Shown here in pieces: positions 32,805 through 61,547 of a stretch of DNA of 64,000 bases. Location of the stretch: positions 2,976,001 to 3,040,000 of the forward strand of contig NZ_LR215979.1 of NCBI RefSeq assembly GCF_900683735.1, written 5' to 3'. The stretch is from Fusobacterium ulcerans ATCC 49185. GTDB taxonomy: Bacteria; Fusobacteriota; Fusobacteriia; Fusobacteriales; Fusobacteriaceae. The notes under the pieces were generated by a model. That model saw only the letters and a program-made list of their open reading frames with translations, ran no database searches and was not told the DNA's origin. The translations under genes and the position numbers were made by a program. Position 1 is the stretch's first letter; every line of letters begins with the position of its first letter.

Positions 32805-33791
32805 TTATTTTTTAAATAAATTAAGATTTTTTGTTTTTAATATATTCATATCCTTATCCACAATTAAAACTTTCATTTTTTTATTATTTTCAGCGTATTT
32901 CATAACTTTTTCTACTGGCATAGTAAAAAATGCAGTTGAATATAAATCAGCTAGAAAAGCATCCTCACAGATGACCATTACCAGTTTTTTATCTCGAACT
33001 GGAAAACCTGTTGTTTTATCTAATATATGATGATATTTTTTCCCATTTATCTCCACATAAGTTTGATAATCACCTGATACTCCCATACCTTCATCATTTA
33101 ATTCTACAATTCCAAGTAAATCTTCGGGATTTTCTGGGTTTTGCACTCCTATTCTCCATGGTTTATTTTCTGGTTTTGTATTTATTACATCTATACTTGA
33201 TATGGTAGTTATAAAAGCACTTGTTATTCCAATTTCTTCCATTACTTTTTTAGCTCTTGCTACAGCATACCCTTTTAAAAAAGATCCAGTATCTATTTCA
33301 TTTACAGGGGATTCCATGTACATTTGATTCCCCTCTATTTTTACTTTATCAAAATCTATTTCTGTAAGTATCTGGGCTAAGCACTCTTTTGATGGAATAG
33401 AAATTTCTCCAACTTCACCAAACCCCCATGCCTTTAATAATGGCCCAATAGTTATGTCATATTTTTTATCTGAAAGTTCATATACTTCTCTCACTTTAGA
33501 AAAAAGCATTAGTCCCTCATCATCTAATTCCACTGGAATAGCAGGATCTGAATTTAATTTTCCTATTATACTAGTTTTTATCTTGCTGTTGAATTTATTA
33601 TCTAATCTCTCTATTTCATTAAATGCTTCTTCCATCCCTTTTTTGGCTAATTTTTCATCCTTATCATAAACTGTTATCTTTATATAAGTTCCAAAAAGAA
33701 ATTTTTCACTTTCGAATTTCTGCATCTTTTTATCTGTACACCCAATAAAAGCAAGTGGAAGTAGCAAAATTATCAAAAGTCTTTTTATCAC
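32805..33791 (-). CDS. apbE: FAD:protein FMN transferase (ApbE), lipoprotein
   Basis: About 328 residues from the GTG chosen here. The signal peptide RLLIILLLPLAFIGC ends in a lipobox Cys. ApbE features follow: GTYIKITVYD, the GPLLKAWGFG block, DTGSFLKGYAVARA, GVSGDYQTY and HILDKTTGFPV. It attaches FMN to Thr residues of exported or membrane flavoproteins such as Rnf/Nqr subunits. The frame extends back into rpoZ to 33845, but the GTG at 33791, one base after the rpoZ stop, gives a normal signal-peptide length. Last gene of the yicC-remA-gmk-rpoZ run. Confidence 0.88.
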   Translation of the reverse strand: MIKRLLIILLLPLAFIGCTDKKMQKFESEKFLFGTYIKITVYDKDEKLAKKGMEEAFNEIERLDNKFNSKIKTSIIGKLNSDPAIPVELDDEGLMLFSKVREVYELSDKKYDITIGPLLKAWGFGEVGEISIPSKECLAQILTEIDFDKVKIEGNQMYMESPVNEIDTGSFLKGYAVARAKKVMEEIGITSAFITTISSIDVINTKPENKPWRIGVQNPENPEDLLGIVELNDEGMGVSGDYQTYVEINGKKYHHILDKTTGFPVRDKKLVMVICEDAFLADLYSTAFFTMPVEKVMKYAENNKKMKVLIVDKDMNILKTKNLNLFKK

Positions 33792-44589: not shown

Positions 44590-44715
44590 TTTTCTTAAAA
44601 ATTACCTCCGTGCCAAAGAATGGAACGGAGGTTGAAATCACACTATGAGGCTAGCGAAACCTGCTTCCAACCTCGGTAGGGTAATTAAGGTTTAAACCAC
44701 CTACGGTCTTTGGTT
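44590..44715 (-). promoter_or_regulatory. Ribosomal protein L10 leader RNA
   Basis: The 160-bp rplA-rplJ gap reads, on the minus strand, CCAAAGACCGTAGGTGG, later CCCTACCGAGGTTGG, then paired arms ACCTCCGTTCC and GGCACGGAGGT just before rplJ. This arrangement, a kink-turn-like stem holding an L10 binding site near the rplJ start, matches the known L10 leader class of low-GC bacteria. Confidence 0.8.
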
Positions 44716-44734
44716 TGGATCTATATTAAATTAT

Positions 44735-47303: not shown

Positions 47304-47421
47304 GCTTGGCAAGTTCCTATCCTCCCAGGAGGCTTCCCTCCAAGTACTTTCAGCGTTTACGGGCTTAACTTCTGGGTTCGGAATGGGACCAGGTGTACCC
47401 CCGCAGCTATTCTTACCAAGC
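47304..47421 (-). rRNA. 5S ribosomal RNA
   Basis: About 118 bases on the minus strand. Terminal arms GCTTGGTAAG/CTTGCCAAGC, and the internal blocks CCCATTCCGAACCCAGAAG and AAGCCC are those of bacterial 5S. Six T follow the terminal stem directly, so the 5S helix may also end the operon transcript. Confidence 0.93.
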
Positions 47422-47445
47422 TGTGTCTTTATTTTTTCTAATAGA

Positions 47446-47470
47446 CACTTGAAACTATATAGTAGCATAC
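47446..47470 (-). other. 3' arm of the 23S rRNA processing stem
   Basis: The 23S-5S spacer holds CTACTATATAGTTTCAAGTG (minus strand), complementary to GGAAACTATATAGTAG with CATT before it in the 16S-23S spacer (about 50475-50500). The two arms flank 23S and should form the long stem cut by RNase III. Confidence 0.65.
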
Positions 47471-47492
47471 GCTTTCGCGCTTTCAATCTTTA

Positions 47493-50402
<2,910 letters not shown>

Positions 50403-50574
50403 ATTTTGTTTTTGTTTAATTTGATTGACAGCTAACTCTGTTTATATAAACAAGAGTTAAAATTGTATTTTATCTACTATATAGTTTCCAATGTCCATTT
50501 GATAAGTTATCCAGCGCTTAATACGCTGCAAGAACATTATCAATAGAATAGAGAAAGAGAAATGATCTCCTTAG
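50403..50574 (-). other. 16S-23S internal transcribed spacer without tRNA
   Basis: 172 bases. No cloverleaf of tRNA-Ile, tRNA-Ala or any other was found on either strand. It holds the 5' arm of the 23S processing stem (about 50475-50500) and a second hairpin TAACTCT/AGAGTTA. Confidence 0.75.
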
Positions 50575-52078
<1,504 letters not shown>

Positions 52079-52230
52079 TTCAATCTATTTACTCAGTTTT
52101 TTAACTGATTGTTTACACCTTTTTATTGTTTGTTGATTTTTTCTTCTCTCTCTATTCTGTTGTTAATGTCCTTATTTTCTTTATTTAATTTATTTCTTCT
52201 TTTGTTCCGCTTTCCTGCGGCACATTGATT

Positions 52231-59265: not shown

Positions 59266-59472
59266 TTTTCTCTCCTTGATAATACACTTTTACTTGTGAT
59301 TATATCATATATCTAATACTTTTTAAATACAAAACGATTAAAAGAAAAAAACTTTAAGTTTAGAATAATATAAAAAAGTGATATAATAAATTCAATCAAA
59401 GTGCTTAATCTAAAATATAATATTTTTTTGAACATACATTAATATTACAAAATTATAATTATGGAGGAAAAC

Positions 59473-60519
59473 ATGCTGAAACTAACATCTTTTTTTCTTT
59501 TACTTCTTTTAACAATTACTTCTTTTTCTAGAGAAATCTATATAAAATTTAATACACTAAAGGGTAATATAAAATATTACAAACCTGGAGATAAGGAAAT
59601 CAGAAGTATCGATTTTTTTAATGGAGAAATTAAATTTTCTTTAAAAGATGATAAATATATATTTCTTTTTACTTCTCCAGAATTTGCTCCTATTGAAAAG
59701 AATATTGATACCAAAAAAGAAAATAATTTTTCTATAAAATTTTCAAAAGCTGACACTGTTTTAATAACTGGAACTGTTCAAGCTGATAATATGAATATTG
59801 GTGGAACTGAAATCTCTTTTGTAAACAGTAAAAATAAAAGTTATACTGTTACAACTGATTTTCTAGGAAAATTTACTGCTTATATTCCTAAAGGAGATTA
59901 TAGAATAAAAACAAATAGATTTGGTTATTCTTTAGATAAGAAGAATGCTCTTGTTTATGAATTTACTTCAACAGGAAAACCTTATAATATCATTATAAAT
60001 CTTCATGAAATTTCAAGTTTTATTGAAGGAAGAGTTATTGATGAGAAAGGAAACCCAATAGCTAATACTGATATAACTGTGAAGAATGGTACTGAAACCT
60101 CTAAAATAACAAGTGATGAGTTTGGAAAATTCAGAAAAAGAGTAGATGCTGGAATAGTTACCCTTATATGTAAAAAAGATGGTTTTATTCAAAATGGGCT
60201 TATAAGAAAAATAGACAGACAATCATCTATTACTAACTTGGAAATTGTATTAAATAAATCTAAATTTAATGTTGAAGGAGTTGTAACTGATGGGGTAAAA
60301 GCTCTTGTAAATATTCCTGTCACTATACATGATGAAGATATTAATAAAATTTCCACTGTTCTTTCCAATGAAAATGGATATTATGAATTCAATGGTATTG
60401 AAGGCGATAAAGATGTATTTATTTCTGTGTCAGATCCTAATTATAAAAGATTTAAAACTCCATTATTTAGACTTGATAAAAATATAACAGATAATAACTT
60501 GATTCTGGAGAAAAATTAA
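59473..60519 (+). CDS. Exported protein with three carboxypeptidase-regulatory-like domains
   Basis: 348 residues. A Sec signal peptide (KLTSFFLLLLLTITSF) is followed by a first beta region and then three similar Ig-like beta domains of about 80 residues: ITGTVQADNMNIGGTEISF, IEGRVIDEKGNPIANTDITV and VEGVVTDGVKALVNIPVTI, each with a later DExGKF/NENGYYEF strand. These CarboxypepD_reg-like repeats occur in surface and periplasmic adhesion or scaffold proteins. The ATG at 59473 is five bases after GGAGG; an earlier ATG at 59461 overlaps that site. Function unknown. Plus strand, alone. Confidence 0.82.
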   Translation: MLKLTSFFLLLLLTITSFSREIYIKFNTLKGNIKYYKPGDKEIRSIDFFNGEIKFSLKDDKYIFLFTSPEFAPIEKNIDTKKENNFSIKFSKADTVLITGTVQADNMNIGGTEISFVNSKNKSYTVTTDFLGKFTAYIPKGDYRIKTNRFGYSLDKKNALVYEFTSTGKPYNIIINLHEISSFIEGRVIDEKGNPIANTDITVKNGTETSKITSDEFGKFRKRVDAGIVTLICKKDGFIQNGLIRKIDRQSSITNLEIVLNKSKFNVEGVVTDGVKALVNIPVTIHDEDINKISTVLSNENGYYEFNGIEGDKDVFISVSDPNYKRFKTPLFRLDKNITDNNLILEKN

Positions 60520-60524
60520 AAAAT

Positions 60525-60553
60525 TTGACAGATTTTTGTTTTTTTATTATAAT
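60525..60553 (+). promoter_or_regulatory. Full-consensus sigma70 promoter
   Basis: TTGACA (60525-60530), exactly 17 bp, TATAAT (60548-60553). It lies right after the stop of the exported repeat protein and drives the RNA element that follows. Confidence 0.85.
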
Positions 60554-60559
60554 TTAAAC

Positions 60560-60676
60560 AATTAAATATCTTTAGAAGTATTTTTCTACGGCGTCCAAAG
60601 TACTCGTTAGGTTTAAACCAATCTTAACTATGGGCGAATTGTAATTAAAAACCAGCCCAAAAGGCTGGTTATTTTT
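60560..60676 (+). ncRNA. Candidate small RNA or attenuating leader
   Basis: From the expected start near 60560 to a strong intrinsic terminator (AACCAGCC/GGCTGGTT, 60650-60670, then ATTTTTAT) lie about 115 bases without an open frame that has a ribosome-binding site. CGTCC (60592-60596) can pair with GGGCG (60632-60636), enclosing GTTAGG/CTTAAC (60606-60611, 60623-60628). The next gene, an exported flavoprotein, begins 20 bases after the T run with its own AGGGAGG, so the unit may be a separate small RNA or a riboswitch-like attenuator. No known riboswitch class was recognised. Confidence 0.6.
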
Positions 60677-60695
60677 ATATATCAAGGGAGGATTT

Positions 60696-61547
60696 ATGAA
60701 AAAATTATCATTATTATTTTTAGTTGTTGCTTTATCTATTTCAGCATTCTCAGCAGAAAAAGCTGATGGTAAAGCTGGAGCTTCTGTCACTGAATCTAAA
60801 AAAGTTGATATGGCAAATATTGATGCCATTACTTCTGCATCTATTGTTCCTACTGCAATTGTAAAAGAATATGTTCCAAAGGGATTTACTGATTCAAAAA
60901 ACAAAAAAGCCTTATTTGTAATAGGTGATCCAAGACATAATAGTGTAACCTTCGATATGGCTTACACTGCTATGAAATTTTTTGAAGAAAATGGAATAGA
61001 AGTAACTCTTCGTGACCTTTATGCTATGAAATGGAATCCAGTTCTTTCATATGATGAATTCTATTATCAAAAAGATGGAATAGGAACTCCTACAAAAGAT
61101 GTAGCTGAAGAACAAAAACTTGTAACTCAGGCTGACTATATTATTTTTGTATATCCTAATTGGCATGATAGTGCTAATTCCATTGTAAAAGGATATCAAG
61201 AAAGAGTATTTGCTAAAGAATTTGCTTATACAGCAGATAATAACGGATTACGAGGTTTATTAAAAGGAAAAGGTCTTTTTACTATGATGAATTGTGGATT
61301 CCTTGGTGGAGGAAGAGGATTTATTGGAAATGGTGTTGGCATATCTGATGAAAAATGGGATTCATATATGAAAGCTTACAAAGTTTTTGATGATGATCTT
61401 GCTGACTGGTGGGGAATGGATAACTATGGAAGATTTATGAATGACAGATATCCAAAAAATCTTTCTGAAAATTATTCTAAAGAAATTGAAAAATTAAGAA
61501 CTGATCTTAAAACTTTACTTCAAAAAACTTTTATTGATAAAAAATAG
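60696..61547 (+). CDS. Exported NAD(P)H-dependent oxidoreductase, flavodoxin-2 fold
   Basis: 283 residues. A signal peptide (LSLLFLVVALSISAFSAEK) and a linker are followed by a Flavodoxin_2 domain: KKALFVIGDPRHNSVTFDMA (flavin phosphate region), a DLYAMKWNPVLSYDEF segment, YIIFVYPNWHDSANSIVKG, and a GLRGLLKGKGLFTMMNCGF stretch. Members such as MdaB and the KefF-type proteins are cytoplasmic quinone reductases; an exported one is uncommon. Outside the cytoplasm there is little NADPH, so the electron donor is unclear. It follows a promoter-terminator leader and ends at its own terminator. Confidence 0.85.
   Translation: MKKLSLLFLVVALSISAFSAEKADGKAGASVTESKKVDMANIDAITSASIVPTAIVKEYVPKGFTDSKNKKALFVIGDPRHNSVTFDMAYTAMKFFEENGIEVTLRDLYAMKWNPVLSYDEFYYQKDGIGTPTKDVAEEQKLVTQADYIIFVYPNWHDSANSIVKGYQERVFAKEFAYTADNNGLRGLLKGKGLFTMMNCGFLGGGRGFIGNGVGISDEKWDSYMKAYKVFDDDLADWWGMDNYGRFMNDRYPKNLSENYSKEIEKLRTDLKTLLQKTFIDKK

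What the first reader, a model, noticed from the sequence alone, without database searches (positions are those of the whole stretch)
60525..60676. Undescribed promoter-terminator RNA unit ahead of an exported flavoprotein
A full-consensus promoter (TTGACA-N17-TATAAT) drives about 115 bases that contain no translatable frame and end in a strong intrinsic terminator, 20 bases before the next gene's own ribosome-binding region. Stems CGTCC/GGGCG and GTTAGG/CTTAAC can nest. It fits either an independent small RNA or an attenuator or riboswitch controlling the exported flavoprotein. I recognise no known riboswitch class. A perfect promoter is rare in this window and suggests high expression.
Basis: partly seen in the sequence, partly recalled or inferred. 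Interest (0 to 1): 0.72.

Follow-up and report, generated by a model that had tools for sequence, protein, structure and literature searches.

The report
Conserved small RNA gene, narrow clade
Between two exported-protein genes lies a short stretch with its own strong promoter and stop signal that most likely makes a small regulatory RNA found in only three closely related species; it looks real and undescribed, but of a familiar kind.

Summary
A perfect promoter (TTGACA-N17-TATAAT, 60525-60553) precedes about 110 non-coding bases that end in a strong intrinsic terminator (60650-60678). The genome has 35 such promoters, against 5 for a control pattern. Two congeners (G003, G001) carry the unit at the same locus; core plus terminator is 84/87 invariant, against 54-73% at fourfold sites of the flanking genes, so it is under selection. 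It matches no Rfam family, and a covariance model finds it in only 3 of 98 genomes of the phylum. A fourth congener (G002) has the same genes side by side without it.

The best reading is a trans-acting small RNA gene in the 3' region of the upstream gene, sharing that gene's terminator. The riboswitch/attenuator reading is weaker. The core hairpin and the terminator fold independently, no competing antiterminator was found, and one species keeps the RNA intact beside a flavoprotein gene with a premature stop. A cis role is not excluded: no promoter consensus lies between terminator and flavoprotein, so any transcript of that gene seems to need read-through. No transcript or target is shown. 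This is a new member of a known kind.

The parts
59461..60519 (+). Upstream gene: 352-aa exported protein with carboxypeptidase-regulatory-like repeats (PF13620). No terminator lies between its stop codon and the RNA unit, so its mRNA probably ends at the RNA's terminator
60525..60553 (+). Full-consensus sigma-70-type promoter; both hexamers kept in three species while 5 of 17 spacer positions vary
60560..60676 (+). Predicted non-coding RNA of about 110-117 nt; the start site is inferred from the -10 position
   Evidence: no transcript data
60573..60588 (+). 5' hairpin UAGAAG-UAUU-UUUCUA; one-sided, pair-keeping changes between species. It competes with the optional UACGG/UUGUA extension of the core stem
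60587..60643 (+). Core hairpin: P1 60592-60597 with 60631-60636, upper stems around internal loops, palindromic GGUUUAAACC at the tip; 58 of 60 columns of 60584-60643 invariant
60650..60678 (+). Intrinsic terminator, 8-bp stem and U tract; stem invariant in three species
60686..60691 (+). Shine-Dalgarno sequence GGGAGG of the flavoprotein gene; no promoter-like site listed between terminator and start codon
60696..61547 (+). Downstream gene: exported flavodoxin-fold protein (Flavodoxin_2, related to NAD(P)H:quinone oxidoreductase) with the motif DAITSAS near its N terminus

Best explanation
The interval is a small RNA gene. A sigma-70 promoter directly after the upstream gene's stop codon makes an RNA of about 110 nt, which ends at an intrinsic terminator shared with the upstream mRNA. 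The structured, near-invariant core of about 60 nt is the functional part and most likely acts in trans on mRNAs or a protein. As a side effect the terminator separates the flavoprotein gene from the upstream gene and leaves it to read-through. Shown by sequence: promoter, terminator, lack of a coding frame, selective conservation, narrow distribution, clean absence in one relative. Inferred: transcription, action in trans, targets.
For: Perfect promoter, genome-wide excess over control (35 v 5), hexamers kept while the spacer varies. Strong terminator. Core plus terminator 84/87 invariant in three species, against 54% and 73% at fourfold sites of the two neighbours (binomial P about 6e-8 at 0.75). 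The core folds better than shuffles on the + strand (z -2.3) and not on the - strand (z 0.16). Core hairpin and terminator are separate domains: forcing the terminator's 5' arm to pair upstream costs about 10 kcal/mol. The RNA is intact in G003 although its flavoprotein gene has an in-frame TGA. G002 keeps both neighbours without the RNA. FoxJ, an F. nucleatum sRNA detected by northern blot, was likewise first taken for a 5' UTR (PMC11005410).
Against: No transcript data. No covariation (0 two-sided changes), one inner pair is broken in G003, and only three close species carry it. No promoter lies between terminator and flavoprotein, which fits a leader as well. A crude target scan of the window gave nothing beyond shuffled controls. 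The G003 stop may be a sequencing error or a recent loss.
Confidence: 0.55

Rival explanations
1. Cis-acting leader of the flavoprotein gene: an attenuator or riboswitch-like element. The core senses a ligand, protein or RNA and sets read-through at the terminator.
For: The order is promoter, structured RNA, terminator, Shine-Dalgarno, gene. No promoter-like site lies in the 25 bases after the terminator stem, so expression of the gene seems to need read-through. The 24-25 bases after the terminator are conserved too. FoxJ is proposed to act on terminators inside operons in F. nucleatum, so controlled read-through has a precedent in the phylum (PMC11005410).
Against: No antiterminator: the best structure engaging the terminator's 5' arm upstream is -6.2 against -15.9 kcal/mol. 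The core occurs only at this one place in three genomes, and beside no other flavoprotein gene among its homologues in the genus and family. G002 does without it. In G003 the gene is disrupted and the RNA unchanged.
Confidence: 0.27
2. Promoter plus terminator with no regulatory RNA: the unit only ends the upstream mRNA and supplies a weak read-through promoter for the flavoprotein gene. The RNA between is a by-product.
For: The upstream gene has no other terminator. The unit arose or was lost as one block with the signal-peptide coding region.
Against: The 60-nt core between them is 58/60 invariant, which such a role does not need.
Confidence: 0.13
3. The core is a DNA operator with imperfect dyad symmetry bound by a regulator downstream of the promoter.
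For: The core is an imperfect palindrome around GGTTTAAACC (I10).
Against: It is longer than usual operators. Fold stability is strand-specific and uses G-U pairs of the + strand.
Confidence: 0.05

Closest known systems
FoxJ sRNA of Fusobacterium nucleatum (PMC11005410)
   Same: About 156-nt sRNA gene between two genes, with its own promoter and terminator, just ahead of a gene, first taken for its 5' UTR
   Different: Locus der/ylmH, a sigma-E promoter, conserved across F. nucleatum strains, and ylmH has its own start site. Here the promoter is sigma-70 consensus, the neighbours differ and no separate downstream promoter is seen. FoxJ's sequence was not compared directly.
sRNAs from mRNA 3' ends made from an internal or own promoter, such as MicX (PMC9438474)
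   Same: Starts at the 3' end of a coding gene and apparently shares its terminator
   Different: MicX is from Vibrio cholerae and its promoter lies inside the coding gene; here the promoter lies just after the stop codon and no target is known
Transcription-terminating riboswitches, such as the FMN riboswitch
   Same: Structured RNA and intrinsic terminator ahead of a flavin-related gene
   Different: No Rfam match, no alternating antiterminator, present in three species only

Membership tests
Any Rfam 15 family | Covariance-model match at gathering score | tested here: not met
   nothing at gathering score; best sub-threshold matches on the + strand are far below cut-off
Transcriptional riboswitch or attenuator | Terminator and antiterminator as mutually exclusive folds | tested here: not met
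   the terminator's 5' arm finds no competitive upstream partner
Transcriptional riboswitch or attenuator | Same aptamer ahead of related genes in several lineages | tested here: not met
   one copy each in three congeners, none ahead of other flavoprotein orthologues
Transcriptional riboswitch or attenuator | Ligand-dependent termination | not testable with these tools
   Needs in-vitro transcription or reporters
[quoted passage not shown]
Intergenic small RNA gene | Sequence conserved beyond neutral expectation | tested here: met
   84/87 against 54-73% at fourfold sites
Intergenic small RNA gene | Discrete transcript of that size | not testable with these tools
   No RNA data held
Intergenic small RNA gene | Compensatory changes in stems | tested here: inconclusive
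   0 two-sided changes, 2 one-sided changes that keep the pair, 1 broken pair; too little divergence
FoxI/FoxJ sigma-E-dependent sRNAs | Sigma-E promoter | tested here: not met
   the promoter is an exact sigma-70 consensus
FoxI/FoxJ sigma-E-dependent sRNAs | Sequence relationship to FoxI or FoxJ | not tested
   Their sequences were not retrieved; the R1 model finds no convincing match in other genera of the phylum

The most novel reading that the evidence does not exclude
The core is a new class of regulatory RNA sensor that controls read-through into an exported, probably covalently flavinylated, flavodoxin-type protein, and is therefore a clade-specific redox or flavin sensor.
Probability: 0.06. 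Interest if true: 0.7.

Novelty: new member of a known kind. Interest (0 to 1): 0.34.

Why it matters
A strongly conserved, clade-specific RNA gene gives a testable case of recent sRNA gain or loss at a fixed locus, with a natural relative (G002) that lacks it. If the terminator really sets flavoprotein read-through, it would also be a natural case for the intra-operonic terminator control proposed for FoxJ.

Tried and rejected
Known RNA family: rejected. Mobile or repeated element: a single strong copy per genome, and no match in phage or plasmid records. Viral-contig pattern matches: L058 shares only the short pattern itself and L063 gives no model match. The weak G077 match (27.7 bits, E 0.07) rests mostly on its terminator hairpin. 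A degenerate core pattern had no match in the named genome collection, which may leave out records near the window. Small protein: only MGEL. Antisense or target search in the window: best duplexes no better than shuffled controls. Literature: no paper holds F. varium, RNA-seq and sRNA together.

Full report
OBSERVATION. The window holds TTGACA-N17-TATAAT at 60525-60553 and a strong intrinsic terminator at 60650-60678. It is the only perfect promoter in the 64 kb. The genome has 35 on both strands, against 5 for the same pattern read backwards, so such matches are mostly real. Between them are about 95 bases with no coding frame longer than MGEL. The whole 119-nt stretch folds at -29 kcal/mol, z -3.4. 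Much of this is the terminator (z -3.5). The core 60585-60645 alone has z -2.3 on the + strand and 0.16 on the - strand.

SURROUNDINGS. The unit begins 5 bases after the stop codon of a 352-aa exported protein with carboxypeptidase-regulatory-like repeats (59461-60519). It ends 25 bases before the start of an exported flavodoxin-fold protein (60696-61547; Flavodoxin_2, nearest solved relatives NAD(P)H:quinone oxidoreductases). There is no terminator before the unit and no promoter-like site after its terminator. So the upstream mRNA probably ends at the same terminator, and the flavoprotein gene seems to depend on read-through. This is inference from consensus scans.

COMPARISON. BLASTN finds the unit in two congeners, G003 (98%) and G001 (94%), at the same locus. 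A covariance model from the three finds no convincing fourth copy in 98 genomes of the phylum; G077 at E 0.07 rests mostly on its terminator. In three-way comparison core plus terminator is 84/87 invariant. The promoter spacer is 12/17, the 5' part 20/30, and fourfold sites of the neighbours 51/95 and 72/98. The -35 and -10 hexamers are unchanged. That is selection on the RNA and its signals, not slow drift of the region.

PRESENCE AND ABSENCE. G002, an outgroup to the three by protein identity (83% against 94-95%), has the same two genes separated only by AAAAGGAGATATTGTAA, with no promoter, RNA or terminator. The start of its flavoprotein also differs: a membrane-anchor-like N terminus instead of a Sec-type signal. 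The unit was gained or lost as a block. Flavoprotein orthologues in other members of the genus and family also lack it. In G003 the flavoprotein gene carries an in-frame TGA where the others have a tryptophan codon, while the RNA is intact.

STRUCTURE. The model has a 5' hairpin (60573-60588), a core hairpin (P1 60592-60597 with 60631-60636, with a possible UACGG/UUGUA extension and a palindromic GGUUUAAACC tip) and the terminator. 98.9% of cells pair, but there are no two-sided changes, 2 one-sided changes that keep the pair, and 1 broken pair. Structure is therefore plausible but not proven.

MECHANISM. For a terminating riboswitch one expects an antiterminator. Folding successive transcript lengths leaves the core unchanged at -15.9 kcal/mol up to the terminator, and forcing the terminator's 5' arm to pair upstream gives only -6.2. 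Together with the narrow distribution and the G003 and G002 cases, this favours an independent small RNA over a cis switch. It does not exclude a leader that works with a protein or a trans RNA. FoxJ of F. nucleatum is the nearest analogue: an sRNA first annotated as a 5' UTR, and one proposed to act on terminators inside operons (PMC11005410).

VERDICT. A real, conserved sRNA gene candidate with no Rfam match and none found in the papers searched, restricted to one small clade. It is a new member of a known kind. Transcription, targets and mechanism remain to be shown.

Noticed in passing
60696-61547; also L067-L076: The exported flavodoxin-fold protein and all orthologues checked carry T-S-A-S, mostly as D-x-x-T-S-A-S, just before the flavodoxin domain, one residue off the ApbE flavinylation motif D-x-x-[ST]-G-A-[ST] (PMC12052999). 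Several homologues in Bacillota (Hungatella, Oscillospiraceae, Anaerorhabdus) carry a canonical motif (DAVSGAT, DTLSGAT, DAETGAT) ahead of it. The genome has one ApbE gene, inside this window. This may be a covalently flavinylated exported quinone-reductase-like family.
   Followed up: partly
59266-59378: The intergenic region between the divergent DUF1694 gene and the 352-aa gene holds about 85 bases that are identical in all four related species, G002 included. The 129-base stretch tested is 97-98% identical in all four; weak partial hits elsewhere in the family look like A+T-rich chance.
   Followed up: partly
L065 (G003), flavoprotein gene: In-frame TGA in place of a tryptophan codon (K-stop-NP) in an otherwise intact flavoprotein gene; sequencing error or recent disruption.
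   Followed up: no
44590-44731: Ribosomal protein L10 leader (RF00557) on the minus strand, and an rRNA operon at 47304-52082.
   Followed up: no
32865-33695 (minus): ApbE flavin transferase gene, the only one found in the genome.
   Followed up: no
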